From IMG/VR virus record IMGVR_UViG_3300042896_001133, positions 1-34,814 of that record: a stretch of 34,814 nucleotides of DNA. One strand, 5' to 3'. Below are positions 1,562 through 34,814 of this stretch, one piece after another. This stretch comes from a virus. Made by a program: the position numbers and the translations under genes. Every line of letters starts with the position of its first letter. Positions within the stretch are counted from its first letter, which is position 1. A model generated the notes under the pieces. That model had not been told where the DNA came from. It saw only the letters and a list, made by a program, of their open reading frames with translations, and searched no databases.

Positions 1562-1640
1562 GGATGCCTCCTTCCATTCGCTTGAACTGCAACATCTCAA
1601 GCTTGGCACATTGCGATGCCGTCAGGGAGGGAGGCATCCA
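1559..1640 (-). promoter_or_regulatory. Hairpin enclosing the transposase ribosome-binding site
   Basis: In the transposase mRNA sense, TGGATGCCTCC (1640 down to 1630) is followed 58 bases later by its exact complement GGAGGCATCCA (1571 down to 1561). The second arm contains the ribosome-binding site and the first base of the start codon. A transcript entering from outside the element would include both arms and could hide the start site. One starting inside would contain only the second arm. Pairing is seen directly; the regulatory role is inferred by analogy with other insertion sequences. Confidence 0.5.
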
Positions 1641-1787
1641 CTCCATCACTTGGTGGGTTCTTTTGGCCAGAAAAGCCACCTTCGGAAGCCACCCTCAGGC
1701 CAGATCGGCAGAACACCTTGATTCCACGCCACAAAATGGATTGACATTTCTAGCCCCCTTGACGTACCCCTTGATTGTCGAAGAGTT

Positions 1788-1819
1788 GCGCCCGGAGAAA
1801 ACCCCTCGCGGGCGCTTTT
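1788..1819 (+). terminator. Putative factor-independent terminator before the methyltransferases
   Basis: A 7-bp GC-rich stem GCGCCCG (1788-1794) with CGGGCGC (1809-1815) is followed directly by TTTT (1816-1819). It lies in the 264-bp gap between the insertion sequence and the first methyltransferase gene. A TTGACA hexamer at 1741-1746 could be a -35 element but has no good -10 partner. The rest of the gap shows nothing I recognise. Confidence 0.4.
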
Positions 1820-1911
1820 GCTTTCCCCCATCGCGGACCCTGACACAGCAACTGGCGTTTGCCGGGGCTTGCATTGGTCTGTCCGCCCTGCCCCGGATCC
1901 GAACCCCACCC

Positions 1912-3222
1912 ATGGACCTTGTCTTTGCGCCGAGCCAGATCGAGAGCTGGCCGATCGACCGGCTGCGCCCCTATGCCCGCAATGCCAAGATCCACGGCAC
2001 GGACCAAGTCGCCAAGATCGCGGCAAGCATGGCCAAGTTCGGCTGGACCGTGCCTTGCTTGGTGGCTGACGATGGCGATCTGATTGCGGGCCACGGTCGG
2101 GTGCTGGCCGCCATCATGCTGGGGCTGACCGAGGTGCCGGTGATCCGGCTCGGCCACCTCGACGAGGCCGAACGCCGGGCGTACCGGATCGCGGACAACA
2201 AATTGACCGAGTTGGGCGAATGGGACGAGGCGATGCTGCGCGACGAGATCGCGGGGCTGCTGGCCGAGGATTTTGACCTGTCGCTTCTCGGGATCACCGA
2301 CGAAGATCTGGACGCCCTGCTCCGCGATCCGGACGAGGCGGAAGGCGGCGCGGTCGAAGGAGAGGATGATATCCCCGAACCGCCGGTCTCGCCGGTGTCA
2401 GTGGCGGGTGACCTGTGGCAGCTTGGGTCGCACCGACTGATCTGCGGCGACAGCACATCCGCCGATGTGGTCGGGCGGCTGCTGGGTGATGTTCGCCCGC
2501 TGCTGATGGTGACTGATCCGCCCTATGGCGTGGAATACGATCCGTCCTGGCGCAACCAGGCGGGGGCAGCGAAGACCAAGAGAACCGGCAAGGTGCTGAA
2601 TGACGACCGGGCCGACTGGCGCGAAGTCTGGGCGCTGTTCCCTGGCGACGTGGCTTATGTCTGGCACGGCGCGCTGCACTCTTCGACCGTGGCCGAAAGC
2701 CTGGCTGCCGCGGGTTTCGCCGTCCGGTCGCAAATCATCTGGGCCAAGGACCGCCTCGTCCTCAGCCGCGGCGATTACCACTGGCAACATGAACCCTGCT
2801 GGTATGCCGTGAAAAAGACCGGCAAGGGGCACTGGGCTGGCGACCGTAAGCAGACCACACTCTGGCACATCTCCGGCAAGGATCAGGACGCTGCCACCGT
2901 GCATGGCACCCAAAAGCCGGTCGAATGCATGCGCCGCCCTATCCTGAACAACTCCAGCCCGGGTCAAGCGGTGTTCGAACCCTTCATGGGATCCGGCACC
3001 ACGCTGATCGCGGCGGAAACCACCGGGCGGGTGTGCTTCGGGATCGAGTTGAACCCGGCTTATGTCGATGTGGCCATCGAGCGCTGGCAGCAATTTACCG
3101 GCGCCAATGCCGTGCTGGCGGACTCCGGTGAAACCTTCGTCGACCTGAAGGCCAAGAGGCTGGCGGCAGGAATGCGCCCCCGCTGCCCGGCCGGATCGAA
3201 CACTGGCCCCTCGCCCGGCTGA
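1912..3222 (+). CDS. ParB-like domain / DNA methyltransferase fusion (DPPY type)
   Basis: This 436-residue protein probably methylates DNA bases, with the amino order of beta-class enzymes. Residues 1-130 form a ParB/sulfiredoxin-like domain (PYARNAKIHG, LIAGHGRVLAA, YRIADNKLTELGEWD). The catalytic motif TDPPYG is near residue 200 and the AdoMet-binding FEPFMGSGTT is near residue 360. DPPY is usual in N6-adenine enzymes, so adenine is the likely target; the recognition site cannot be read. The ATG at 1912 has no strong ribosome-binding site but places the ParB domain at the usual distance. Its last 90 bases overlap the open frame of the next gene in another phase, and one extra base there would fuse the two. 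Such enzymes are common in phages, where they protect against restriction. Confidence 0.88.
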   Translation: MDLVFAPSQIESWPIDRLRPYARNAKIHGTDQVAKIAASMAKFGWTVPCLVADDGDLIAGHGRVLAAIMLGLTEVPVIRLGHLDEAERRAYRIADNKLTELGEWDEAMLRDEIAGLLAEDFDLSLLGITDEDLDALLRDPDEAEGGAVEGEDDIPEPPVSPVSVAGDLWQLGSHRLICGDSTSADVVGRLLGDVRPLLMVTDPPYGVEYDPSWRNQAGAAKTKRTGKVLNDDRADWREVWALFPGDVAYVWHGALHSSTVAESLAAAGFAVRSQIIWAKDRLVLSRGDYHWQHEPCWYAVKKTGKGHWAGDRKQTTLWHISGKDQDAATVHGTQKPVECMRRPILNNSSPGQAVFEPFMGSGTTLIAAETTGRVCFGIELNPAYVDVAIERWQQFTGANAVLADSGETFVDLKAKRLAAGMRPRCPAGSNTGPSPG

Positions 3223-3263: not shown

Positions 3264-4532
3264 GTGGCGAAGATCGCCGCCAGCATTGCCGAGTTCGGAT
3301 GGACCGTGCCGGTGCTGGTGGCGGCCGACGGCGAGCTGATCGCGGGCCATGGCCGCATCCTCGCCGCCGTACACCTCGGGCTTTCCGAAGCCCCTGTGAT
3401 CGTGCTGGGCCACCTGACCGAAGCCCAGCGCCGCGCCTATCGGATTGCGGACAACAAGCTAACCGAACTGGGCGGGTGGGACGACGCCCTGCTGCTGCAA
3501 GAACTTCAGGCCCTCCTGGCCGAGGATTTCGACCTCGGGCTGATCGGGATCCCCGAGGATGAACTGGACGCGCTGCTCCTCAACACTGACGACCGCCCGG
3601 CGATTTCTGATGATGCTGCCGATACGATCCCGGCCCCGCCCGCTGATCCGATCACCAAGCCGGGGGACATCTGGGCGCTGGGCAAGCACCGGCTGTGCTG
3701 CGGCGACGCAACCGATCCCTCGGCCATCGCCAGGCTGATGCAGGGCGAACTGGCAAAGCTGATGTTCACTTCGCCGCCCTATGCCCAGCAGCGCGATTAC
3801 GGCGCGGCCAAGGAGAAGGTCGGCGATTGGGATGCGCTGATGCAGGGCGTGTTCGCCGCAGCCCCGGTCACCGCCGAGGCCCAGCTGCTGGTCAATCTCG
3901 GCCTGGTGCATCGCGACAGCGAATGGCAACCCTATTGGGAAGGATGGGTGGAATGGATGCGCGGCTCTGGCTGGCGACGGTTTGGGTGGTATGTGTGGGA
4001 TCAGGGGCCGGGATTGCCGGGCGATTGGAACGGCCGCTTGGCCCCGTCACACGAGTTCATTTTCCACTTCAACCGCGCACCGCGCAAACCCCACAAGACC
4101 GTCCCGTCCAAGCACGCGGGCGAAACCTTGGGCGGCGGTGGGCTGCGCGGGGCCGACGGCGCCGTGCACGCCAAAACCGGCACCGGCAACGCGATCCAAA
4201 GCCATCGTATCCCGGACAGCGTCTTGCGGATCATGCGCCACAAGGGCGGGCTGGGTGCCGCCGGATCACATCCAGCCGTGTTTCCGGTGGCGCTGGTCGA
4301 GGAAGTGCTGACAGCGTTCTCAGACCCGGGCGACCTGATCTACGAGCCGTTCTGCGGCTCCGGCACCCAGATCGTCGCCGCTGAACGAACTGGGCGGCGC
4401 TGCTTCGCCATGGAACTGGATCCCGTCTATTGCGACGTCGCGGTGCGGCGGTGGGAATTGGCGACGGGGCTAAAGGCGAAGTTGGAAAATCGCAACGAGA
4501 CCACCATTGGCAAGGAGACAAAACAGCAATGA
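3264..4532 (+). CDS. ParB-like domain / DNA methyltransferase fusion (SPPY type), start uncertain
   Basis: This is a second methyltransferase with the same plan: ParB-like domain, catalytic motif TSPPYA and AdoMet motif YEPFCGSGTQ. SPPY suggests N4-cytosine rather than N6-adenine methylation. The GTG at 3264 is the first standard start codon in this frame, yet homologous ParB sequence begins upstream: RIEHWPLARLKPYARNAKTH is encoded from 3192, and the frame is open from 3132 without ATG, GTG or TTG. The true protein therefore begins earlier, either at a non-standard codon or through frameshifting from the preceding gene. One extra base in the C run at 3177-3181 would join both genes into one frame of about 873 codons. 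The stop overlaps the next start (ATGA). Confidence 0.8.
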   Translation: MAKIAASIAEFGWTVPVLVAADGELIAGHGRILAAVHLGLSEAPVIVLGHLTEAQRRAYRIADNKLTELGGWDDALLLQELQALLAEDFDLGLIGIPEDELDALLLNTDDRPAISDDAADTIPAPPADPITKPGDIWALGKHRLCCGDATDPSAIARLMQGELAKLMFTSPPYAQQRDYGAAKEKVGDWDALMQGVFAAAPVTAEAQLLVNLGLVHRDSEWQPYWEGWVEWMRGSGWRRFGWYVWDQGPGLPGDWNGRLAPSHEFIFHFNRAPRKPHKTVPSKHAGETLGGGGLRGADGAVHAKTGTGNAIQSHRIPDSVLRIMRHKGGLGAAGSHPAVFPVALVEEVLTAFSDPGDLIYEPFCGSGTQIVAAERTGRRCFAMELDPVYCDVAVRRWELATGLKAKLENRNETTIGKETKQQ

Positions 4533-23723: not shown

Positions 23724-26700
23724 ATGGCAACTTTGGTTCTCGGCGCCGTCGGCTCCGCGATTGGCGGCGCATTTGGCGGGGCCATCCTCGGCTTTTCCGG
23801 GGCCGCTATCGGTGGCTTCATCGGCTCGACCATCGGGTCGGTGGTCGACAACTGGATCGTCTCGTCACTTGCCCCGGCCCAACGCATCGAGGGCGCGCGG
23901 CTCGACAGCCTGCGCATCACCTCATCCACTGAAGGGGCCGTGATCCCGCGCCTGTTCGGCCGGATGCGGATCGGTGGCAATATCATCTGGGCCACGGATT
24001 TCCGCGAGGAGGTCAACACTACCCGTCAAGGCGGCGGCAAAGGCAGCGGGCCGAAGGTCACCACCACCGAATACCTCTATTATGCCAGCTTCGCAGTCGC
24101 GCTGTGCGAAGGCGAGATAACCGGCATTGGCCGCATCTGGGCCGACGGCAAGGCCATGGACATGACCGACGTGACCTGGCGCTGGTATCCGGGCAATGAG
24201 GTGCAGGCGCCCGATCCGTTCATTTCGGCCAAGATGGGCGCGGCCAGCACGCCCGCCTATCGTGGCACCGCCTATGTCGTCTTCGAGGAGTTGAACCTCA
24301 GCGCCTTCGGCAACCGCCTGCCGCAGATCAGCTTCGAAGTGTTTCGGCCCCTCTCGGATCCCGACACTGCTGAGTGCTTGGTGCGCGCCGTAACGATGAT
24401 CCCGGCCTCGGGCGAATTCGCCTATGCCACCGTGCCGGTCAAGAAATCCAGCGGCTCCGGCAGCGCCACCGTAGCCGAAAACCTGAACGCCATTCCCGAG
24501 ACGCCGGACATGGTCGTGGCGCTGGACCGTCTGCAATCCTTGGCACCGGCGGTGGAAAGCGTGTCGCTGGTGGTGGCGTGGTTCGGTGATGATCTGCGCG
24601 CCGGAAACTGCAAGGTGCGGCCGGGCGTTGAGGTGGACACCAAGACAACGACGCCCTCGCCTTGGGTTGTGAATGGTGTCGCACGCGCGGATGCGTTTCT
24701 GGTTAGCCGGGATGTTGAGGACCGTCCAGTTTACGGCGGCACGCCTGCAGATTTCGCAGTCGTTCAGGCCATCCAGGAGATGAAGGCGCGCGGGTTGCGG
24801 GTGACTTTCTATCCCTTCCTGCTGCTGGACGTGCCACCCGGAAACACCAAGCCCAATCCCTACAGCGCCAATGCCGCCACCTCGGGCCAGCCGACATTCC
24901 CTTGGCGTGGCCGGATTACCTGTTCCCCAGCAGCAGGTGTTGCCGGATCGGTCGACAAGACTGCTACCGCCGCGACACAGGTTGCAGCCCTGTTCGGGAC
25001 GGCGACACCCGCCAACTTCAGCGTGTCAGGCACCACTGTCAGCTGGACCGGCCCTGTCGGGGAATGGTCGCTGCGCCGGATGATCCTGCACTATGCGCAT
25101 CTCTGCAAAGCGGCAGGCGGCGTCGATGCCTTCCTGATCGGCTCGGAAATGCCCGGCCTGACGACCATCCGCTCAGGCGCCAGCACCTATCCTGCCGTTG
25201 CTGCCTTCAAGACTCTCGCCGCCGATGTCCGTGCAATCCTCGGCCCTGGGCCCAAGATCGGCTATGCCGCTGACTGGTCAGAATATTTCGGTCACCACCC
25301 TGCCGACGGCAGCGGCGATGTGTTCTTCCATCTCGATCCGCTCTGGTCGGACGCCAACATCAACTTCATCGGCATCGATAACTACATGCCACTATCGGAC
25401 TGGCGCGACGGCTTCGATCATGCCGATGCAGCGCTGGCCCCGGCAATCTATGACCGCGACTATCTGCAATCGAACATCACCGGCGGCGAAGGGTTCGACT
25501 GGTTTTATTCCAACGCCCTTGATCGGACCGAGCAAAACCGCACACCAATCACCGATGGTGCGGCGGCCAAACCATGGGTGTTCCGCTTCAAGGATTTGCG
25601 CGCCTGGTGGCAAAACCCACACTTCAACCGACCCAGCGGGGTGGAAAGCGGCACGCCCACGGCATGGGTACCGCAATCGAAACCGATCTGGTTCACCGAA
25701 CTCGGTTGCCCAGCTATCGACCGCGGCACTAACCAGCCCAACGTGTTCTTCGACCCGAAATCGTCGGAAAGCTTTACGCCCTACTTCTCGCGCGGCTGGC
25801 GCGACGATGCGATCCAACGCGCTTATCTGGAGGCGACCTATCTGTTCTGGGGTGCTGCGGCGAACAACCCGCTGTCCTTGGTCTATGGCAACCGCATGGT
25901 CCAAGTCACCGAATGCGCCGCCTGGACCTGGGATGCTCGCCCCTATCCGTTTTTCCCCGAACTGACCGATGTCTGGACCGATGGCCCGAATTGGCGGCTG
26001 GGGCATTGGCTGACCGGTCGGCTGGGTGCGGTATCGCTGGCAGCGCTGGTGCGCCACCTCTGCATACGCGCAGGCTTGCCAGAGGAATTGATCGACGTCT
26101 CCGGCCTCTGGGGTGCCGTCGAGGGCTATGTGATTTCAGCACTGGAGGCCCCACGTGCATCGATTTCCACGCTGGCGCGGCATTTCGGTTTCGATGCTGT
26201 GGAGAGCGACGGCCGCATCCGCTTCCTGATGCGCGGCCGCATTGCCGGTCTGACCATCACGCCCGACAGCATGGTCGCGCCCGCCTCCGCACAGGGCGAC
26301 GTGATGGAACTGACCCGGGCGCAGGAAACCGAACTGCCGCAAGCCCTGAAATGGCAGGTTGCCCGCGCCGACGAGGATTATGACGCGGCGCAGGTCGAAG
26401 CCCGGCGCATCACCGTCGACACAACCCGGATCGCATCCGAGGCCTTCCCGATGGCGATCCCGCCCGAGGAGGCAGAACGCCGCTGCCGCCGCGCGCTAAT
26501 GGAGGCATGGGTGGGCCGCGAAACTGCCGTCTTTCGTTTGCCGCCGTCGCGTCTGGCGCTGGATCCCTGCGATGTTATCCTGCTCGACCACGATGGCCGC
26601 CTGACCGAAATGCGGCTGGTCTCCATCGCCGACTCCGACCTGCGCAGCATCGATGCTGTCCGCCAGGACCGGGCCGTCTACGACCTCCCGCCCGGAGAGC

Positions 26701-27695
26701 CTCGACCGGCGTCCTTGTCGACCCCGACCGTGTTCGGCGCACCAGACATCGTGCTAATGGACTTGCCGCAGCTGCGCGAGGATCAGCCTGCGCACCGACC
26801 CATGGTTGCGGCCCATGCCAAACCATGGCCGGGTGAGATCGCGGTCTACCGAAGCGCCGCGACAGATGGATTTGCCCTGCTGACCACCTTCAGCTCGCGA
26901 GCGCGCATGGGCGTGTTGGCGGCCGACTTCTTTGCCGGGCCGGTGTCGCGGTTCGATCTGGGCAATGCGCTGGTGGTCGATCTGTTCTCGGGCACGCTGG
27001 AAAGCGTCACGGACATCACCTTGCTGGGCGGAGCGAACGCGCTGGCCGTGGAAACCGGCGCTGGGCAGTGGGAGATCGTCCAGGCGGGATCGGCTGAGTT
27101 GATCGCACCCGGCCGATATCGCCTGTCCCGCCTCCTGCGCGGGCAGCGTGGAACCGAAGGGGCGATGGTCAGCATTTTGCCGACCGGCGCGCGGGTCGTT
27201 GTGCTCGACACGGCGCTTGCATCGCTGCCAATCAGCGAGGCCGACCTCGGCTTGCCATGGAACTGGCGCAGTGGCCCAGCCTCGCGTCCGGTCAGCGATG
27301 AAACCTTTGTTGCCACCAGTTTCACCCCCGAGGGCGCTGGGCTGCGGCCCTTCTCGGTCAGCCATGTCGAGCAGCCTTGGCGTACCGCCCGCAGCCCCGG
27401 CGATCTGGCGATCCGCTGGACGCGCCGGTCGCGATCGCTGGCCGCCGACACCTGGGGTGCGGGCGATGTGCCGTTGGCCGAGGACAGTGAAGCCTACGAG
27501 GTGGAAATTCTCGACGGGGTAACTCGTAAGCGAACCTTACAAGTTGCGACCAGCGCAGCGCTCTACACCGCCGCACAGCAGACCGCCGATTGGGGCGCAC
27601 CCCTCGGGCCCGGCCAATCCGTTGCCATCCGCATCTACCAGCTCTCGGCCCTGATCGGTCGGGGCGCTGGGCGATCCGTCACCCTTACCTTCTGA
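23724..27695 (+). CDS. Host-specificity tail protein with GTA TIM-barrel domain (gp15-like)
   Basis: This 1323-residue protein is the tail tip of the gene transfer agent type. A Gly/Ala-rich membrane-active N-terminus (GAVGSAIGGAFGGAILGFSGAAIGG) is followed by the conserved beta domain (VIPRLFGRMRIGGNIIWATDF). The TIM-barrel domain lies at about residues 420-720 (FLIGSEMPGLTTIR, IGYAADWSEYFGH, FIGIDNYMPLSDWRDG, PIWFTELGCPAIDRGTNQPN). Tail-tip beta domains complete the protein. The barrel looks like a glycoside hydrolase fold; the WFTELGC glutamate and the IDNYMPLSDW part are candidates for the active site. The gene has GGAAG upstream. Length and order match the gp15 family. Confidence 0.94.
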   Translation: MATLVLGAVGSAIGGAFGGAILGFSGAAIGGFIGSTIGSVVDNWIVSSLAPAQRIEGARLDSLRITSSTEGAVIPRLFGRMRIGGNIIWATDFREEVNTTRQGGGKGSGPKVTTTEYLYYASFAVALCEGEITGIGRIWADGKAMDMTDVTWRWYPGNEVQAPDPFISAKMGAASTPAYRGTAYVVFEELNLSAFGNRLPQISFEVFRPLSDPDTAECLVRAVTMIPASGEFAYATVPVKKSSGSGSATVAENLNAIPETPDMVVALDRLQSLAPAVESVSLVVAWFGDDLRAGNCKVRPGVEVDTKTTTPSPWVVNGVARADAFLVSRDVEDRPVYGGTPADFAVVQAIQEMKARGLRVTFYPFLLLDVPPGNTKPNPYSANAATSGQPTFPWRGRITCSPAAGVAGSVDKTATAATQVAALFGTATPANFSVSGTTVSWTGPVGEWSLRRMILHYAHLCKAAGGVDAFLIGSEMPGLTTIRSGASTYPAVAAFKTLAADVRAILGPGPKIGYAADWSEYFGHHPADGSGDVFFHLDPLWSDANINFIGIDNYMPLSDWRDGFDHADAALAPAIYDRDYLQSNITGGEGFDWFYSNALDRTEQNRTPITDGAAAKPWVFRFKDLRAWWQNPHFNRPSGVESGTPTAWVPQSKPIWFTELGCPAIDRGTNQPNVFFDPKSSESFTPYFSRGWRDDAIQRAYLEATYLFWGAAANNPLSLVYGNRMVQVTECAAWTWDARPYPFFPELTDVWTDGPNWRLGHWLTGRLGAVSLAALVRHLCIRAGLPEELIDVSGLWGAVEGYVISALEAPRASISTLARHFGFDAVESDGRIRFLMRGRIAGLTITPDSMVAPASAQGDVMELTRAQETELPQALKWQVARADEDYDAAQVEARRITVDTTRIASEAFPMAIPPEEAERRCRRALMEAWVGRETAVFRLPPSRLALDPCDVILLDHDGRLTEMRLVSIADSDLRSIDAVRQDRAVYDLPPGEPRPASLSTPTVFGAPDIVLMDLPQLREDQPAHRPMVAAHAKPWPGEIAVYRSAATDGFALLTTFSSRARMGVLAADFFAGPVSRFDLGNALVVDLFSGTLESVTDITLLGGANALAVETGAGQWEIVQAGSAELIAPGRYRLSRLLRGQRGTEGAMVSILPTGARVVVLDTALASLPISEADLGLPWNWRSGPASRPVSDETFVATSFTPEGAGLRPFSVSHVEQPWRTARSPGDLAIRWTRRSRSLAADTWGAGDVPLAEDSEAYEVEILDGVTRKRTLQVATSAALYTAAQQTADWGAPLGPGQSVAIRIYQLSALIGRGAGRSVTLTF

Positions 27696-27705
27696 AAGCA
27701 GGATC

Positions 27706-29631
27706 ATGTCCGACATCACCACCCACCTGCTACTGCCCTACATCCTGGCATCGCAGGCGCAAAAGCATGTCACACACAACGAGGCGCTGCGGCTGCTGGA
27801 TGCTATGGTTCAGCTGTCAGTGCTGGACCGCACGCGCACCGCCCCATCTACCAGCCCGACCGACGGCGACCGGCATATTGTGGCGTCTGGGGCGACAGGT
27901 CTGTGGGCTGGCTGGGACTTGAACGTGGCCTTCTGGGTCGATGGCGTCTGGATGCAGCTGGTGCCGCGCCCGGGCTGGCTGGCATGGATCGCGGCAGAAC
28001 AGATGTTTCTGGTCTGGAACGGCAGCGCCTGGGATCCGGTTGGCGAACCGGTGGATGTTCCTGACAGCGTCTTCAGCCTCGTAAACACCGCCGATCCGAC
28101 AAAGCGGGCGACATTCTCGCTGTCGGGGATCAGCACCGGGACAACCCGCACCTTCACGCTGCCGAACACCTCGTCGGAACTGGCAATTCTCGCGGGCACG
28201 CAAACCTTCACCGGCAACAAGACCTTCTCCGGTTCGTTGACCGCCTCGGGCACCGTCACGGTTTCGGCGGCGGCAGCAAGCATCGGGACGGCCACGACTA
28301 CAGCCACCTACGGTGTGGGCACTGGGGCTACGACCACAGGCGTCACCAAGACGCTGAACTTCGGCACCGGCGGGGCCTCCGGATCGACCACGGTCGTGAA
28401 CATCGGCTCGGCCACCGCAGGTGCCGTCGGGACCACGGTGGTGAACACGCCCACGGTCACTTTTGCCAATGCCGTCACCCAGGTCGACATGCCTCAGGCC
28501 AACCTGACCGCGCAGCTTCTTGGCCTCGGCGGGGCAGCAGCGGACAGCTACAACCGCCTCTCCATGAACACGCCCGCCGTGCTGCTGAACAACGCCGGTG
28601 CCGGGATCGAGGCGACGGTCAACAAGGCGGCGGCCGGAAACGATGCGGCCTTCGCCTTCAAGACAGGGTTCTCCGCCCGTGCGCTGATCGGGCTTCTCGG
28701 CAATGACGACTTCAGCTTCAAGGTCAGCCCAAACGGATCGGCCTTCTTTGACGCGATCCGGATCGACCGTGCTTCCGGCCGGGTCGAACTGCCCGAACCG
28801 TTCGTGCTGCCTGCCCTGGCCGCTGCGCCCGATCCGCCGCCCGCTGGCAAGCTGGCCGTCTATGCCCGCGACCGCGCCGGGGCCGGATGGCTCGATGTGC
28901 AGCGCCCCTCGGGCCGGTTCTTTCCGTTGCAGCCGCATTTCGGGGTCAACCGGATCGCCACTTGGGCGCCGTCCACCAGCACGACGGTCAACACAAACGG
29001 TATGCCGCGCACGGCTGTCGGCACTGTGGCGACGCCGACGCTGACCACCACAGGCCTGGCCGACAGCATGCGGCGCTGGCGGGTGACCAGTGCGGCCGCA
29101 GCCAGTGCGGTGGCCGAAGAACGCTCCGCAGGCTGGGTCTGCTGGCGCGGCAATGCCGATGGCCTCGGCGGCTGGAACTACGTCAACCGCCTGTCGCTGA
29201 CCACGGTGCAGGCAACGGGCATGGGGTTTTTCGGGCTGTATGGTTCGGTTGCGGCGCTGGCGACCACCCTGACGCTGGCCACGGTGCTGAACTGCATCGG
29301 CATCGGCTTCCAGCGCGGTACCCATACCAGCTGGCAGCTGGTGCACAATGACGGCGCGGGCGCGCCGACGCTGATCGACCTCGGCGCCGGTTTCCCGGTG
29401 GCCAGCATGACGAATGTGCTGACGCTCTACATCGCCGCTGCGCCGAACGGGTCGGATATCGGCGTGCGGGTGGTCGAGGAAGTGAGCGGCGCAGCGGTCG
29501 AGTTCACCATCACCACCGACATGCCCGCCGCCACCCAACTGCTCAGCCCGCGCAACTACATGAACAACGGCGCGACGGCGGCAGTCGTCGCCTACGACTG
29601 CGCGGGCGTCTACGTCGAGACAGATTATTGA
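27706..29631 (+). CDS. Tail fibre protein with DUF2793 N-terminus
   Basis: This 641-residue protein begins with the DUF2793 domain (LLLPYILASQAQKHVTHNEALRLLDAMVQL, TDGDRHIVASGATGLWAGWD), which attaches fibres to the tail tip in Rhodobacteraceae phages. Residues 110-300 are Thr/Ser/Gly-rich beta-repeats (FTGNKTFSGSLTASGTVTV, ATTTATYGVGTGATTTG), typical of trimeric fibre shafts. The C-terminal 250 residues include WDLVQ-like WQLVHNDGAGAPTLIDLG and are probably the receptor-binding head. It starts 10 bases after the host-specificity gene. Confidence 0.9.
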   Translation: MSDITTHLLLPYILASQAQKHVTHNEALRLLDAMVQLSVLDRTRTAPSTSPTDGDRHIVASGATGLWAGWDLNVAFWVDGVWMQLVPRPGWLAWIAAEQMFLVWNGSAWDPVGEPVDVPDSVFSLVNTADPTKRATFSLSGISTGTTRTFTLPNTSSELAILAGTQTFTGNKTFSGSLTASGTVTVSAAAASIGTATTTATYGVGTGATTTGVTKTLNFGTGGASGSTTVVNIGSATAGAVGTTVVNTPTVTFANAVTQVDMPQANLTAQLLGLGGAAADSYNRLSMNTPAVLLNNAGAGIEATVNKAAAGNDAAFAFKTGFSARALIGLLGNDDFSFKVSPNGSAFFDAIRIDRASGRVELPEPFVLPALAAAPDPPPAGKLAVYARDRAGAGWLDVQRPSGRFFPLQPHFGVNRIATWAPSTSTTVNTNGMPRTAVGTVATPTLTTTGLADSMRRWRVTSAAAASAVAEERSAGWVCWRGNADGLGGWNYVNRLSLTTVQATGMGFFGLYGSVAALATTLTLATVLNCIGIGFQRGTHTSWQLVHNDGAGAPTLIDLGAGFPVASMTNVLTLYIAAAPNGSDIGVRVVEEVSGAAVEFTITTDMPAATQLLSPRNYMNNGATAAVVAYDCAGVYVETDY

Positions 29632-29642
29632 GGAATATCAAC

Positions 29643-29951
29643 ATGACTGAACGAACATCGCTCCTGCAGGAGGTCGGCCAGGCCTTCCGCGACAACGGCC
29701 TGACCGCCGCCATCACCGCGCTGGTCGGCGGTTGCCTTGCCGTGGCCGCCACCGTCACCCGCAAAGCCTTTACCAACGAGGCGATGCTGGAACGCCTCGA
29801 CCGCGAGCTGTACCTCGAACGGGAGCGAACCGACAAGCAGCGCGCCGATGACCGCAAGGCCGATGCTGACCGGCTGGAACGGATTGAGACGGACATCCGC
29901 GCCATGCGGGATGTGATGTTCGAAGCGTTCCAGCGCGGCCGCACCGACTGA
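29643..29951 (+). CDS. Membrane-anchored coiled-coil protein, holin-like position
   Basis: This 102-residue protein has one hydrophobic segment (about residues 20-39, TAAITALVGGCLAVAATVT). A long charged coiled coil follows (ELYLERERTDKQRADDRKADADRLERIETDIRAM). The ATG at 29643 follows GAGGA. It lies directly before the endolysin gene. Position and topology suggest a holin or antiholin-like lysis accessory, but proteins of this kind are also structural in some phages; the assignment is by context only. Confidence 0.65.
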   Translation: MTERTSLLQEVGQAFRDNGLTAAITALVGGCLAVAATVTRKAFTNEAMLERLDRELYLERERTDKQRADDRKADADRLERIETDIRAMRDVMFEAFQRGRTD

Positions 29952-29983
29952 CAATCACCACGCCACACTTCCGACCCACACCA

Positions 29984-30004
29984 CCCGCCCCCGAGGCGGG
30001 TTTT
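29984..30004 (+). terminator. Hairpin with T run before the endolysin gene
   Basis: CCCGCC (29984-29989) pairs with GGCGGG (29995-30000) over a five-base loop and is followed by TTTT. It is a factor-independent terminator. It probably ends or lowers the structural transcript before the lysis genes, or allows partial read-through. Confidence 0.7.
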
Positions 30005-30023
30005 GCATTTCTGGAGACCCACC

Positions 30024-30698
30024 ATGCCGACGACGACCTATGCCCACTTCCGCGACGTGCCTGAATCTGCCTGGCGCTGGCCCAGCTTTTCCCCGGCCGA
30101 GATTGCCTGCCGCGGCACCGGAGCGATCAAGATCAACACCGAGGCGATGGACAAGCTACAATCCCTGCGTAACCGCCTCGGCAAGCCGCTGATCATCCGC
30201 TCAGGCTATCGGAGCCCCGGCCACAACCGGGCCGTAGGCGGGGCCCCGGCGTCCAAGCACATGCTGGGGACGGCGTTTGATATTGCCATGTCGAACCACG
30301 ATCCGGTGGCCTTCATGGCGGCCGCCCGCGCGGTTGGTTTCCTTGGCTTTGGGACCTATCCCCGCTCGGGCTTCATGCACATCGACCTCGGGCCAGCGCG
30401 CAGTTGGGGCGAGCCGTTTCCAGTCCGCGCGGTTCCGTTTGTGGCTGAGACGCGCCCAGCGCGCGAGGCGCTTGCCGAGAGCCGCACCCTGCGCGGCACC
30501 GGGGCCGCGGGCGTGGCAACTGTGGGCGCAGCCGGCGTCGAGGTCGCGCAGGAGGTGCTGGCCGAGGCGCAGGGCGCGGTTTTGCCGCTGCTTCCCTATC
30601 TCGACACGATCCGCTGGCTGTTCATCGCACTGGCGCTGGGCGGGATCGCGGTCGCCGTCTGGGCGCGGGTCGATGACTGGAAGAAGGGCCTGCGCTGA
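30024..30698 (+). CDS. Zinc peptidase M15 endolysin with C-terminal membrane segment
   Basis: This 224-residue endolysin is of the D-Ala-D-Ala carboxypeptidase type. Zinc ligands are H79 (ASKHMLGTAFDIA), D86 and H119 (FMHIDLG). An N-terminal cell-wall-like part (SFSPAEIACRGTG, MDKLQSLRNRLGKPLIIRSGYRSPGHN) is typical. The C-terminus has a hydrophobic segment at about residues 196-215 (IRWLFIALALGGIAVAVWA), which would anchor the enzyme in the membrane. A signal-anchor or pinholin-dependent release is a possible inference. AGAC-type spacing and GGAG precede the ATG at 30024. Confidence 0.9.
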   Translation: MPTTTYAHFRDVPESAWRWPSFSPAEIACRGTGAIKINTEAMDKLQSLRNRLGKPLIIRSGYRSPGHNRAVGGAPASKHMLGTAFDIAMSNHDPVAFMAAARAVGFLGFGTYPRSGFMHIDLGPARSWGEPFPVRAVPFVAETRPAREALAESRTLRGTGAAGVATVGAAGVEVAQEVLAEAQGAVLPLLPYLDTIRWLFIALALGGIAVAVWARVDDWKKGLR

Positions 30699-30955: not shown

Positions 30956-31118
30956 CAACGCGCGCAGGGCCTGCCCACCCGTGGTGGAATACAGCCGGGC
31001 TGAGCAGGTGCGCGTCGCAGAGGAAGTGGCCACGCTGCCCGAAGGGGCCGTGATTGCTGAATGGCTGGCGGATTATGCGGTGCTGCGCGCGCAGACGCTG
31101 GCGTGCCAGACACCATGA
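30864..31118 (+). CDS. Outer-membrane spanin lipoprotein (Rz1-like)
   Basis: This frame of 84 residues overlaps the end of the i-spanin gene. A short positive segment (MQPRAALAAATIFLSAC) is a lipoprotein signal with lipobox LSAC. The mature part is Glu-rich and short (VVEYSRAEQVRVAEEVATLPEG). GGAG lies seven bases before the ATG at 30864; a second start at 30888 gives the minimal signal peptide. Together with the i-spanin it would fuse the inner and outer membranes at lysis. The overlap in a different phase and the lipobox are direct evidence. Confidence 0.75.
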   Translation: MPFTARCWMQPRAALAAATIFLSACAGGSSDNARRACPPVVEYSRAEQVRVAEEVATLPEGAVIAEWLADYAVLRAQTLACQTP

Positions 31119-31176
31119 ACCCCGACACATCAAAATCGTCTTGGCCGGAAAGCCCAGCGCGCATTAAGCTGGTCAC

Positions 31177-31548
31177 ATGAACCACGACGACGAGAAGCGC
31201 ATTGCGGCAAAGCTGGCCAAGATCATGGCCATGCTTTGCGTGCGCAACACGCAGCTGGAAGCGCTGCATGCCGGCCTGACCCCCATCACCCGGACCGGCG
31301 ACTATTCGGACGTCTTTGTTCTGGATGCCGATGGCCGCCGCATCCCCTGGACCGAAGTCTCGCGCTTCGATGAAGATGAAATGCGCGCGCTGATGCGTGA
31401 CATCGTCAACCGCCTTTATACGTTTCACCTGCATGCGGACGAACCCAAGCTCCAAGCGACGATCGAACGTTGGATGGGCGTTGCGGACACGTGGGATGCG
31501 CCGGAGATCGACCCAAAGATGATCAGCAGCAGCGCGAAGCCTCTATAA
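31177..31548 (+). CDS. Hypothetical protein at right end of phage operon
   Basis: This 123-residue acidic soluble protein is not recognised. It starts MNHDDEKRIAAKLAKIMAMLC and contains DVFVLDADGRRIPWTEVSRFDEDEMRALM. It may be a small adaptor or regulatory protein. A 58-base gap separates it from the spanin, and 54 bases from the convergent mcrC stop. The gap 31549-31602 holds short palindromic pieces (around 31556-31583) but no clear terminator. This is the last rightward gene of the phage group. Confidence 0.65.
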   Translation: MNHDDEKRIAAKLAKIMAMLCVRNTQLEALHAGLTPITRTGDYSDVFVLDADGRRIPWTEVSRFDEDEMRALMRDIVNRLYTFHLHADEPKLQATIERWMGVADTWDAPEIDPKMISSSAKPL

Positions 31549-31602
31549 GGCGCGATGAACCCTGCAAGTGCGGGTGTTCATGGCAGGACGGCCGGGCATG
31601 GG

Positions 31603-32910
31603 TCACGCGGGCATGAATTGGGAAAGGCATAGCTCCGTCAATCGCTTCATATCCTTCACATGTTTTCTCGGCGGGCCGGTCACGTTCAATGTCGCCACGG
31701 ACAGGATCGCCTCGGAATCTTTTGCCCCGATTGCATAGCGCGTGCAGATCGGATGGGGCGGTAGCTCACCATGGTGCGGATAAAGCAGCATGACATTCGG
31801 GCAATTGTAGAGCTGGCTGTAGGCCATCAGCTGATAGACATCCCCTTGGCTGACACCCTGTTTCGGATCGTCGATCTGCGGGGTCATCCGCTTCCATTTG
31901 GTGTCGATAACCATCACGACCCGCTCACCCTGCCGGATGATCACATCGGGCTTTGTCCGAAATCGGCCTGCCTCTCCTTCGAACAGACAGTCGCGATGGC
32001 CGCCTTGTGCTACGACCCGCAGACCACTTCCGGCCAAGGCGCGGGGCAACAGACGGGCGACATAATTTTCGAACAGGGTGTTCATCTCGAAGAGCAGCGC
32101 GTGACCATCGACCGATCCCGCGCTGGTCTGCTGATGCCGGTCCGACAGGAACAGCCGTGCGAAGGACACAAGATCGCGCCAGCGTTGGTTGGTTCGATCA
32201 AGCGTGATCAGGTCCCAGCGCAAAGCCTTGACCGGCACATCGGTAACATCGGCATAGGCGAAGCTCAGCTCGCGCAGTATCCGCTGATTGTCTGGTGCCT
32301 GAGCTAGGCGCTGCAGGCGTGTGATGGCAGCGCGCATCACTCGGTTCAGTGCGATATCAGGGGACAGGTCATCGAAACGGCAAGCTAGCTTTTGGGGCGC
32401 AACGGCGTGTCGCGAGAATTGCCGCGTGACGTCCAGCCGCCCGCGCAGCGAAGGCAGGTCATCTTCATGCTCCAGATAGCGCCGGGGCATGCCTTGGCGC
32501 ACAGCATCCGCAAGCCGTCTACAGAACAGCCGGATCAGCAATTCCAATACGGTGTCCCGTTGCCAGCCAAGCTGCGCCATGGACCCCGCATCGATGGGCA
32601 GGTCGTGCACGACCCCCAGCATGTGGATCAGCCGTGTGCGCAGGTCGGTGTCATGGGGTTTGCGTTCACCAGGCCCTTCGATCTTCGGCAAAATCTCGAG
32701 CTGGCACCCCTGCGCTGCGATGACACCCACCACGCCACGGGCACGCAGGCTCTTGCGGCCGTGCTCAAGCACGCCTTCACCTCCACGGCCCGCGAAGGCG
32801 GACCGCTGCGCGATGGTCGCGATCCTGTCGGCCAGCACCTCGGGGATCGAATCCTCACCATCCTCCCCGTAGCAGATGCGCTGCCATTCACGCAGGGTGC
32901 GGCGGATCAT
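31603..32910 (-). CDS. mcrC: McrC-like restriction endonuclease subunit
   Basis: This 435-residue protein is the nuclease partner of McrB. The N-terminal part contains the RLIHMLGVVHDLP region that contacts McrB, and the middle has LPSLRGRLDVTRQF. The C-terminal PD-(D/E)xK nuclease domain shows KPDVIIRQGERVVMVIDTKWK, with the acidic residue of KPD and the D and K of DTK as metal ligands. The ATG at 32910 overlaps the McrB stop by ATGA, so the pair is coupled. McrBC cuts DNA at modified cytosines. The reading from 32964 is longer but unsupported. Confidence 0.92.
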   Translation of the reverse strand: MIRRTLREWQRICYGEDGEDSIPEVLADRIATIAQRSAFAGRGGEGVLEHGRKSLRARGVVGVIAAQGCQLEILPKIEGPGERKPHDTDLRTRLIHMLGVVHDLPIDAGSMAQLGWQRDTVLELLIRLFCRRLADAVRQGMPRRYLEHEDDLPSLRGRLDVTRQFSRHAVAPQKLACRFDDLSPDIALNRVMRAAITRLQRLAQAPDNQRILRELSFAYADVTDVPVKALRWDLITLDRTNQRWRDLVSFARLFLSDRHQQTSAGSVDGHALLFEMNTLFENYVARLLPRALAGSGLRVVAQGGHRDCLFEGEAGRFRTKPDVIIRQGERVVMVIDTKWKRMTPQIDDPKQGVSQGDVYQLMAYSQLYNCPNVMLLYPHHGELPPHPICTRYAIGAKDSEAILSVATLNVTGPPRKHVKDMKRLTELCLSQFMPA

Positions 32911-34814
32911 GGGGCCAGCAGCCGCGCATAATCGAAACCCTGCTCCACGCTGCGAACCGACCAACGAAACCGGGGCAGAGCCTCACCATTATCGAGCCCC
33001 GGCGGTGCTTTGAGCGCCGAGCGGTTCAGAAACCCGCCGCTGATGTCGTGGTCATGCGTTTCCAGATCGCCCAGCACAGCAGCGATCTTGGCCCAATCCT
33101 CGAAGAAATATTCGGCCAGAAGCGGGATCACCTTGTGGCGCATGACCTCGTCGACATCGGCGGGTGTTGTGCAGCCGGTGAAATAGGCGTGCCCGATCTG
33201 GTGCTCGCGGTCATAGAGGTACTCTATGCGATCATTAATCGTGTTCAGCAGCCGGGGCAGGTTTATCCCGGTGCGCTCCGCCGCATCATCGAGAACGGAC
33301 GGGTCAGGCATCAATTCGCGGAACATAAAGCGCCGCCGCAGCGCCGTATCTAGCAGCGCAATCGAGCGGTCGGCTGTGTTCATCGTGCCGAGGATGTGCA
33401 GGTTCGATGGAACCCCGAATTCATCACCGGAATACGGCAAACGCACCTTGATCTGGTTCGGCTGGCCGAGTCGCTTGTCGGGTTCCAGCAACGTGATCAA
33501 CTCCCCGAAGACCTTCGAGATATTGGCACGGTTGATCTCGTCGATGATCAGAACGAAGGGTTCCGGGTCTGCTGGTCCTTCGACGTGCTGGCTGTTCATA
33601 TAGCGTTCGAGAGCTGGCACGTTCAGTTCGCTGTCATAGAGCAGATAGATCGATTGCTGCATGAACCGGCGCGAGTAGATTTCATCGACGGGAACGCCCT
33701 CGCGATCCACCCAGAGCCATTGGACCGCGCGACGATGGGCATAGTCACCTTCCGGTCGTGGGGCGAACTCGTATTCGCCGGTGAACAGGCCAATCGCACG
33801 AAACCTAGAATTGCCCTTCGACACTATGACGACGTCGCCTGTGCGGATCCAGTTGCGAAACCGAAACGGCATATTAACTGCGCCGGAACGGCCATCGATC
33901 TCACCGCTCTGCGCGCTCTTCGCCTTGCAAGCCTCAAGAATGGCATCCCGGCTGGCATATTTATCATCGCTCCAGTCGATGTCCTCAAATCCGAGAACCG
34001 CGTATCCGCCCTTGATCGCATCCTCGAACAGATGGGCATCCTCTGGCTTGTTCGCTTCGCCGATCGACATCTTGAACACCTGCCGTCCGGCGATCTGGAC
34101 ACTATCTGCGGTTGATGCGCGCCCTCGGCTGGTCTCAGCCCGCTTTGCGATACGTCGAAATGTTCCCGGCACGGTTTCGAGCCTGAACCCGGCTGAAGCC
34201 GTGCTCTCTCCGTCGTCGGCCCCGGTCATGGGCTGCCGACCCTCGACAAAATCTTCATAGGCCATTGACTGGTGAAAGGTCACAAACTCGATCCTCCCCG
34301 CCGCCAACAGTCGCTGATACACATCCATCAACGCGCCGCGGTCAGCTGGCACCGGCTCACCACACAAGCGGACGGCTTCGGCTGTCGTGCTGTAGGTTTT
34401 TCCAGTGCCGGGCGGGCCATAGAGAATGAGATTTTGTGCCATAGCTGCGCCAACCCTATCTGTTGTCTCGATCTCCGTCTCGGCCGGTTCGGCCGCTTCC
34501 CATAGGCGTGCCAAAGCTCGGGCCGCAGCAGATTTGATCAGGATACCCGAGGATTGCGGGCTCCAGTCCTGACCCGCGATCTTACTGGTCAACATGTCGA
34601 AAGGCACGAAGGCATCCAGCGCTGGATCTCGGATATCCTCGAATTCGACATCGATGAATTCAGCAGTTTCGCCAGCTTCCGCGCGCGCCTTGTCCCAATG
34701 GGTGTCGCGGTAAGGTGCCTTGGCCACCCTGCCGCGGGCAATCACCCCACGTGGATCCTGCCCTGTTCGGAGGAGGTATACCCGGTCGTCAACCTTCGGT
34801 TTCTTCGAGCTGGT
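32907..34814 (-). CDS. mcrB: McrB-like AAA+ GTPase with two EVE/PUA-like segments, 5' end outside window
   Basis: The frame is open to the right edge, so the protein is partial at its N-terminus. The visible start TSSKKPKVDDRVYLLRTGQD, followed by PRGVIARGRV, resembles an EVE/PUA-like modified-base reader. Numbered from a GTG at 34745, the Walker A GPPGTGKT is at 110-117, the Walker B region VLIIDEINRANISKVFGEL at 398-416 and the McrB signature NTADRSIALLD at 456-466. Between them lies an insert of about 180 residues containing VFKMSIGEANKP, YAVLGFEDIDWSD and RTGDVVIVSKGNSRFRAIG, again EVE-like. The AAA+ ring would drive McrC cutting after recognition of modified DNA. The GTG at 34745 is not the true start because the conserved sequence continues upstream. 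Confidence 0.92.
   Translation of the reverse strand, partial: TSSKKPKVDDRVYLLRTGQDPRGVIARGRVAKAPYRDTHWDKARAEAGETAEFIDVEFEDIRDPALDAFVPFDMLTSKIAGQDWSPQSSGILIKSAAARALARLWEAAEPAETEIETTDRVGAAMAQNLILYGPPGTGKTYSTTAEAVRLCGEPVPADRGALMDVYQRLLAAGRIEFVTFHQSMAYEDFVEGRQPMTGADDGESTASAGFRLETVPGTFRRIAKRAETSRGRASTADSVQIAGRQVFKMSIGEANKPEDAHLFEDAIKGGYAVLGFEDIDWSDDKYASRDAILEACKAKSAQSGEIDGRSGAVNMPFRFRNWIRTGDVVIVSKGNSRFRAIGLFTGEYEFAPRPEGDYAHRRAVQWLWVDREGVPVDEIYSRRFMQQSIYLLYDSELNVPALERYMNSQHVEGPADPEPFVLIIDEINRANISKVFGELITLLEPDKRLGQPNQIKVRLPYSGDEFGVPSNLHILGTMNTADRSIALLDTALRRRFMFRELMPDPSVLDDAAERTGINLPRLLNTINDRIEYLYDREHQIGHAYFTGCTTPADVDEVMRHKVIPLLAEYFFEDWAKIAAVLGDLETHDHDISGGFLNRSALKAPPGLDNGEALPRFRWSVRSVEQGFDYARLLAP

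What the first reader, a model, noticed from the sequence alone, without database searches (positions are those of the whole stretch)
32907..34814. McrB with two EVE/PUA-like reader segments
One PUA/EVE-like segment precedes the AAA+ domain (DDRVYLLRTGQDPRGVIARG). A second of about 180 residues is inserted between Walker A and Walker B (VFKMSIGEANKP, TGDVVIVSKGNSRFRAIG). Two readers in one subunit could let the system test two modifications, or two positions, before McrC cuts. The protein continues beyond the window.
Basis: partly seen in the sequence, partly recalled or inferred. Interest (0 to 1): 0.5.

Follow-up and report, generated by a model that had tools for sequence, protein, structure and literature searches.

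The report
Dual-reader McrB with a swappable insert
A restriction motor at the end of a phage sequence appears to carry two modified-DNA reader domains, one in front of and one buried inside its GTPase, and relatives indicate that both readers are exchanged like cartridges while much of the motor stays the same.

Summary
The window ends inside an mcrB gene (minus strand, 32907-34814) overlapping mcrC by 4 bases. By sequence the insert is homologous to the N-terminal domain of Mrr-type nucleases (hhalign 99.5%). New here: both readers are exchanged between similar McrBs. Actibacterium and Thiosulfatihalobacter McrB agree at 97 of 97 fourfold sites after the insert, but 10 of 38 within it. Of 115 pairs with core identity at least 85%, the insert is below 60% in 51, at least 75% in 62; three control stretches show 0/66, 0/130, 1/124 below 60%. 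N-terminal readers fail to match in 102 of 180 close pairs. GTPase insertions were already reported in general terms (PMC11090510); my searches found no report of this insert's identity or exchange. Which modifications are read, and by what logic, cannot be told. Verdict: real; a new variant of McrBC.

The parts
34494..34814 (-). Reader 1: C-terminal part of an EVE-like domain (residues 1-107); its first ~36 residues lie beyond the window
   Evidence: 95% identical to L008 over 107 aa; model of the complete L008 domain matches EVE-type structures 2ar1 Z 10.7, 2gbs 10.2, 1zce 10.0, 5j3e 9.9, 2eve 9.7; hhalign against canonical EVE 65%
34395..34418 (-). Walker A, GPPGTGKT, residues 133-140
   Evidence: all but P134 invariant in the 84 rows of A3, P134 nearly so
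34131..34259 (-). Helix 2 with beta-hairpin (residues 186-228), part of the McrB core
   Evidence: model secondary structure; helix-2 hairpin described for TgMcrB (passage)
33579..34088 (-). Reader 2: insert (residues 243-412), PUA/EVE superfamily, closest folds YTH and PH1033-type; exchangeable cassette
   Evidence: pLDDT mostly about 90; Z 9.8 to 1wmm, 9.7 to 6wea, 9.6 to 4rdo; hhalign 99.5% to Mrr N-terminal domains; exchange evidence
33717..33719 (-). W366 of the insert, candidate pocket residue
   Evidence: Trp in 84 of 84 rows; pocket role inferred
33987..33989 (-). F276 of the insert, candidate pocket residue
   Evidence: F/W/Y in 79 of 84 rows; pocket role inferred
33531..33551 (-). 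Walker B, LIIDEIN, residues 422-428
33369..33380 (-). NxxD GTPase signature (NTAD), residues 479-482
32907..34814 (-). mcrB, 5' end missing (635 aa in the window)
   Evidence: VIA Z 25.5 to T. gammatolerans McrB 6ut5
31603..32910 (-). mcrC (435 aa), ATG overlaps the mcrB stop in ATGA; PD...DTK nuclease motif present
   Evidence: Pfam McrBC PF10117 E 2e-71; overlap and motif positions
23724..30698 (+). Phage genes next to the system: tail protein (23724-27695), an ORF of a phage family without known function (27706-29631) and a peptidase/endolysin (30003-30698)
   Evidence: PHROGs hits

Best explanation
This is an McrBC (Type IV) restriction system, carried at the end of a phage sequence, whose McrB subunit has two readers of the PUA/EVE superfamily: an EVE-like one before the GTPase, and a YTH/EVE-like one inserted between helix 2 and the Walker B strand. 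In a McrB hexamer this would place a second ring of readers on the motor itself. Most likely each reader flips and binds a modified base in foreign DNA; binding at one or both loads or licenses the GTPase, and McrC cuts. Shown: the gene pair, the motor motifs, the predicted folds, homology of the insert to Mrr N-terminal domains, and exchange of both readers between McrBs with similar motors. Inferred: that the insert binds modified DNA, which bases are read (the nearest structures suggest 5mC/5hmC for reader 1 and N6-methyladenine for reader 2), and how binding is coupled to GTP hydrolysis.
For: McrB and McrC families and motifs. Folds of both readers. Insert homologous to N-terminal domains of Mrr_cat nucleases: hhalign 99.5%; the 7 scanned of 8 such proteins all carry Mrr_cat; PADLOC PDC-S02 E 9.5e-12. 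Exchange of the insert: L013/L023 fourfold sites 97/97 in residues 415-600 against 10/38 in residues 243-400; 115 pairs with core >=85%: insert under 60% in 51, between in 2, at 75% or more in 62, against 0/66, 0/130 and 1/124 under 60% for three core stretches; insert data reject two core groups, AU p 0.004 and 1e-81, on 44 of 84 rows; reciprocal case L059/L083, insert 92.3% with core 76.2%. Exchange of the N-terminal reader: no match of 50 residues or more in the proximal 150 aa in 102 of 180 pairs with core >=85% (BLAST), insert matched in 180 of 180. The same reader type sits on insert-free McrBs in Sinorhizobium plasmids and in viral contig L113. mcrC adjacent in 90 of 95.
Against: No binding or restriction data. 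Reader 1 scores below Pfam's EVE cut-off (17.8 and 14.7 against 23 bits), its model is only moderately confident (pLDDT blocks 50-83) and the window copy is truncated. At E <= 0.1 the 48 insert rows matched only weak, scattered Pfam families (best E 0.024), EVE in one row at 0.028, YTH in none; insert against EVE by hhalign only 12.5%. Z values near 10 are only moderately above the background of 7-8 that the tool states. The pairs counted are not independent. In L013/L023 the left flank (residues 140-200) is also diverged, 18/31 fourfold sites and 82% DNA, so near-identity is on the right side only; residues 200-242 are intermediate, 18 of 116 pairs under 60%.
Confidence: 0.65

Rival explanations
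1. The insert has the PUA-like fold but does not sense modified DNA: it binds another trigger (a phage protein, RNA, or unmodified DNA) or is a regulatory brake, and is exchanged because phages counter it.
For: Exchange without known ligand fits any target under arms-race selection. A PUA-superfamily domain that appears not to sense modification is reported for HHPV4I (passage).
Against: The same domain type sits at the N-terminus of Mrr_cat nucleases, a usual place for a modification reader; an invariant Trp and a nearly invariant aromatic fit a base pocket.
Confidence: 0.2
2. Only the insert reads DNA in this group; the EVE-like N-terminal part is an accessory or position-setting module.
For: The insert is matched in all 180 close pairs while the N-terminal proximal region is not in 102 of them.
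Against: The same N-terminal region serves an insert-free McrB in Sinorhizobium, where it would be the obvious candidate reader.
Confidence: 0.12
3. The readers recognise modified RNA rather than DNA, as proposed for CoCoNuTs.
For: [quoted passage not shown] YTH-like domains occur in CoCoNuT McrB homologues predicted to target RNA (PMC11090510, passages).
Against: NxxD and not NxD motif, and mcrC with an apparently intact PD-DxK motif. Coiled coils were not tested.
Confidence: 0.06
4. The insert is a rapidly drifting, functionally neutral expansion of the GTPase.
For: Insert identity is low between many close relatives.
Against: Near-identical silent sites next to saturated ones point to replacement, not drift; W366 is Trp in 84 of 84 rows; the distribution is bimodal.
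Confidence: 0.03

Closest known systems
Thermococcus gammatolerans McrB (YTH-McrB; PDB 6ut3-6ut7)
   Same: McrB GTPase core, Z 25.5, 41% identity over 313 aligned residues; a YTH-type reader in the subunit; McrC partner
   Different: Its YTH reader is N-terminal (passage); here the YTH-like domain is inside the GTPase and a second, EVE-like reader is N-terminal
E. coli K-12 McrB
   Same: GTPase core Z 19.9, McrC partner
   Different: N-terminal DUF3578 reader (passages); no comparable insert in the aligned chain of 288 residues
EVE-McrB fusions and McrB with GTPase insertions (Bell et al. 2020, PMC7641849; 2024, PMC11090510)
   Same: EVE-superfamily readers fused to McrB; insertions in GTPase domains 'likely encoding specificity domains' reported in general
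   Different: The passages and sections I read do not identify this insert, its Mrr kinship or its exchange; the 2020 paper's figure 7 legend says EVE can occur in either drawn position 'but not both' (passage)
PcdA of Staphylococcus aureus (PMC10602043)
   Same: McrB-family protein with two EVE domains (passages)
   Different: Both EVE domains are N-terminal, NTPase motifs partly degraded, works in cell division
Mrr-type nucleases with the PDC-S02 N-terminal domain
   Same: N-terminal domain homologous to the insert
   Different: Nuclease of 324-340 residues in the seven scanned, without a GTPase match
VcaM4I (EVE-HNH, PDB 6yex; PMC7897488)
   Same: PUA-superfamily reader; 6yex matches the insert at Z 9.2
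   Different: HNH nuclease with one EVE domain (abstract and passages); no motor

Membership tests
McrB GTPase family | Walker A, Walker B and NxxD motifs in an AAA+ fold like solved McrB | tested here: met
McrBC (Type IV restriction) | mcrC with a PD-(D/E)xK nuclease next to mcrB | tested here: met
   PF10117 E 2e-71, 4-base overlap and PD...DTK; within 400 bases in 90 of 95 relatives
McrBC (Type IV restriction) | GTP-dependent cleavage of modified DNA | not testable with these tools
   needs biochemistry
EVE domain (reader 1) | Sequence score over the curated PF01878 cut-off (23 bits) | tested here: not met
   17.8 bits in P0001, 14.7 in L008; hence 'EVE-like'
EVE domain (reader 1) | EVE/PUA fold | tested here: met
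   Z 9.7-10.7 to EVE-type structures, model range 1-146, moderate pLDDT; hhalign 65%
YTH domain (insert) | Match to a YTH Pfam model | tested here: not met
   no YTH family among matches at E <= 0.1 for 48 rows; hence 'YTH-like fold'
YTH domain (insert) | YTH/PUA fold | tested here: met
   Z 9.2-9.7 to YTHDC1/YTHDF2, 9.8 to PH1033, confident model
YTH domain (insert) | Binding of N6-methyladenine | not testable with these tools
   needs binding assay
Mrr N-terminal reader (PDC-S02) | Profile homology | tested here: met
   hhalign probability 99.5%, E 5.6e-23
CoCoNuT | NxD instead of NxxD motif | tested here: not met
   NTAD at 479-482; definition from PMC11090510 section 7

The most novel reading that the evidence does not exclude
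McrB has two independent reader sockets on one GTPase motor: an outer one filled by unrelated domains, and an inner one, in the AAA+ fold next to Walker B, filled by alleles of one YTH/EVE-like domain. Recombination reassorts them, much as target-recognition domains are shuffled in Type I systems (recalled), giving a combinatorial detector (for example of 5mC/5hmC and N6-methyladenine) in which occupancy of the inner reader directly gates GTP hydrolysis and McrC cutting.
Probability: 0.3. Interest if true: 0.75.

Novelty: new variant of a known kind. Interest (0 to 1): 0.52.

Why it matters
McrBC specificity is normally credited to one N-terminal reader. A second reader inside the motor, exchanged by recombination while the adjoining motor half stays almost identical even at silent sites, would mean that Type IV systems diversify their targets in two places at once. 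It also offers natural pairs (similar motor, different insert) with which to test what each reader sees and how reading is coupled to GTP hydrolysis.

Tried and rejected
Sequence search of the insert and of reader 1 against solved structures gave no credible match (best E 0.1 and 0.017), and Pfam gave nothing firm for the insert; the folds rest on predicted models. Fold search with the whole window model was filled by AAA+ chains; one EVE-type structure, 1zce, appeared at rank 40 with E 3e-3, and the 50 VIA rows shown were AAA+ proteins. I therefore modelled an unchanged stretch of the L008 protein that ends before Walker B. Reader 1 and the insert are not detectably homologous to each other by profile (hhalign 1.3%), so a recent internal duplication is not supported. 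No close relative of the whole protein was found in named phage records: none of the 21 records hit covers 80% of the query, and reader 1 had no match; AcaML1 phage McrB lacks a large insert. A profile search for reader 1 in viral contigs returned only the contig already known as L113. An alignment with L113 included was dropped because that row aligned badly (replaced). No tRNA was found in the window. I looked for published accounts of an identified insert or of reader exchange (listings); the closest is the general statement in PMC11090510 (sections 6 and 7 read whole; otherwise passages). The Hosford paper on the T. gammatolerans YTH reader is not held, so statements on it come from other papers' passages. 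The CoCoNuT reading was rejected on the NxxD motif.
Full report
What is there. The window is a virus record of 34,814 bases with phage genes for terminase, portal, head, tail and peptidase/endolysin on the plus strand. At its right end, on the minus strand, lie mcrC (31603-32910) and an mcrB that runs off the end (32907-34814), overlapping in ATGA. McrC has Pfam McrBC at E 2e-71. McrB has Walker A, Walker B and NxxD, and its model matches solved McrB at Z 25.5 (T. gammatolerans, 6ut5) and 19.9 (E. coli, 6ut6). The finding's motifs are present.

Two readers. In 128 McrB-like proteins (127 loci, near-copies included, and the window), the Walker A to Walker B distance is 265-305 residues in 96 (window 290), 75-124 in 17, 130-240 in 10, 240-262 in 3 and above 305 in 2. 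In the window model the extra residues, about 243-412, follow helix 2 and precede the Walker B strand; they form beta-alpha-beta, further helices and then beta strands, mostly at pLDDT about 90. A second model used an unchanged stretch of a 93% identical relative (L008, Rhodobacteraceae MAG) spanning the complete N-terminal reader and the insert but ending before Walker B. VIA-align gave: model residues 1-146 to EVE-type structures 2ar1 (Z 10.7, rmsd 3.9, 132 aligned), 2gbs (10.2, 3.4, 125), 1zce (10.0, 3.4, 124), THYN1 5j3e (9.9, 3.9, 135) and 2eve (9.7, 3.9, 126); and model residues about 270-448 to PH1033 1wmm (9.8, 2.7, 115), YTHDC1 6wea (9.7, 3.0, 129), YTHDF2 4rdo (9.6, 3.0, 125), MJECL36 2p5d (9.6, 3.3, 116) and VcaM4I 6yex (9.2, 3.9, 126). 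The tool warns that models without a clear match often reach Z 7-8, so the support is good rather than overwhelming; reader 1 has only moderate pLDDT (blocks of 50-83). That 2ar1, 2gbs, 1zce and 2eve belong to the EVE group is partly recalled; the listing names them as structural-genomics entries.

Sequence kinship. Reader 1 aligns with canonical EVE profiles from its first residues (WNP..W.W against SEP..W.W), hhalign 65%, but stays under Pfam's EVE cut-off. The insert is firmly related to the N-terminal domain of Mrr-type nucleases: hhalign 99.5%, E 5.6e-23; seven of the eight such proteins found were scanned, and all seven carry Mrr_cat behind it. That domain in turn aligns with EVE at 73%, the insert itself only at 12.5%. 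In 84 aligned inserts one Trp (366) is invariant and position 276 is aromatic in 79. Their resemblance to the aromatic pocket of YTH domains is my inference, with the YTH pocket recalled.

Distribution. With the insert profile, 16 of 240 genomes drawn from the class of L008 match, L008's own genome included. Eight matches are strong (E 1.2e-37 or better): six in long frames that hold Walker A, Walker B and MNTADR with a spacing of 284-295, one in an interrupted gene with Walker B and MNTADR, one in a 199-residue frame without these motifs. Eight are weaker, in frames of 334-386 residues. Of 398 genomes from the phylum, again with L008's own, 28 match: 16 in frames of 647-1226 residues at E 8e-23 or better, and 12 weaker, 11 of them in frames of 330-415 residues and one of 803; those frames were not checked for motifs. 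Plasmids of Klebsiella, Sinorhizobium and Sphingomonas carry the form too.

Exchange of the outer reader. Among 94 of 96 insert-bearing McrBs (the two with under 100 residues of N-terminus dropped), the 150 residues before the GTPase show no BLASTP match of 50 residues or more at E 1e-3 in 102 of 180 pairs whose GTPase core is at least 85% identical by BLAST, while the insert is matched in all 180. The window's own N-terminal region is shared with L002, L008, L009, L010 and L029 and with the fragment L026, but its type also occurs on insert-free McrBs of Sinorhizobium plasmids (spacing about 80-85, read off the sequence) and, in part, of viral contig L113 (53% over 76 residues, spacing 80).

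Exchange of the inner reader. In L009/L024 and L023/L012, protein identity falls from about 95% to 28-70% across the insert and returns to about 95%. In L013 (Actibacterium) against L023 (Thiosulfatihalobacter), residues 415-600 agree at 182 of 186 residues and 97 of 97 fourfold sites, while residues 243-400 agree at 76 of 158 residues and 10 of 38 fourfold sites. The left flank is less clean: residues 140-200 agree at 57 of 61 residues but 18 of 31 fourfold sites. L013, L023 and L024 form a mosaic: L013/L023 share the N-terminus (90.7% over the proximal 150 residues) but not the insert; L023/L024 share the insert (99-100% DNA) but their N-terminal DNA is at about 50%, with a single 35-residue protein match; L013/L024 share mcrC (97-99% DNA) but neither reader. 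Of 3,486 pairs, 115 have core identity of at least 85%: insert under 60% in 51, 60-75% in 2, at least 75% in 62. The same test on core stretches gives 0 of 66, 0 of 130 and 1 of 124 under 60%; the 43 residues just before the insert are intermediate (18 of 116), so a left breakpoint probably lies there. Two groups defined on the core (13 and 7 rows) each form one side of a branch in the core tree (support 90, not starred, and 98, starred), but are rejected as such by insert data, AU p 0.004 and 1e-81; these are quick trees on 44 of the 84 rows, and the second figure involves long branches, which the tool warns about. Nine of 3,486 pairs show the reverse, insert closer than core by 6 points or more, for example L059/L083 with 92.3% against 76.2%; there the left core part (88.3%) goes with the insert and the right part (70.9%) does not. 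The pairs are not independent. The genome loci were the best 80 hits to the window protein including its insert, a bias that should hide rather than create insert divergence.

Setting. In L008 the same phage tail region and mcrBC are collinear with the window over 7.9 kb at 85%. In L092, L053, L094, L095 and L073, homology to the phage ends at window 31106-31107 and a different mcrBC follows; in L061 and L093 the order is the same but homology ends earlier. Those five lie in one core group of seven (with L061 and L096) that holds five insert types. Of the best 80 of 192 related phage loci found by the peptidase gene, 2 (L265, L271) carry mcrBC; L271 is the same contig as L092. About 34 of the 80 hold 2.5 kb or more beyond that gene, four of them counted by hand. 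Ten proteins beyond it, chosen by me from ten loci, gave GmrSD, a Type I HsdR-like protein, a reverse transcriptase, two UvrD-type helicases and one other helicase, a histidine-kinase-type ATPase, a subtilase, DUF2326 and one without a match. Some may be host DNA, as the prophage ends are unknown; for the same reason the mcrBC of the window may be phage cargo or the adjoining host.

Mechanism and judgement. The best-supported reading is a Type IV McrBC with two exchangeable readers per subunit, most likely sensing modified bases. The step from fold and exchange to modified-DNA sensing is inference, though it follows what is known of the PUA superfamily (VcaM4I abstract and passages; passages). 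AND, OR or positional logic cannot be told. GTPase insertions in McrB were reported in general terms (PMC11090510, section 6), so the architecture is not categorically new; the insert's identity and its cassette exchange are, as far as my searches show (open-licence papers only).

Noticed in passing
window 1564-3222 and 3264-4532: Two neighbouring ORFs both match the same ParB-nuclease/DNA-methyltransferase phage family (phrog_498): apparent tandem paralogues at the other end of a phage sequence that carries a modification-dependent restriction system.
   Followed up: no
window about 31107-34814; L219, L226, L229, L230, L242, L261, L269, L275, L279, L282: The stretch after the phage peptidase looks like a cargo slot: related phage contigs hold GmrSD, an HsdR-like protein, a reverse transcriptase, helicases and other genes there instead of mcrBC.
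   Followed up: partly
L008:3-5053: Upstream of the 93% identical mcrB lie an Eco57I-type methylase gene, apparently interrupted by a DDE_3 transposase, and an HNH endonuclease gene, suggesting a larger defence island.
   Followed up: partly
L069:5932-7920: An McrB 74% identical in its best segment has an insert enlarged by about 130 residues in its middle (Walker spacing 422).
   Followed up: no
L109, L134, L137: Viral-contig McrBs with Walker spacings of 192-198 residues carry extra segments that, by eye, do not resemble the EVE/YTH-like insert.
   Followed up: no
L144:4284-6440, L146:3113-5440: Sinorhizobium plasmid McrBs carry the window's N-terminal reader type on a GTPase without the insert.
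   Followed up: yes
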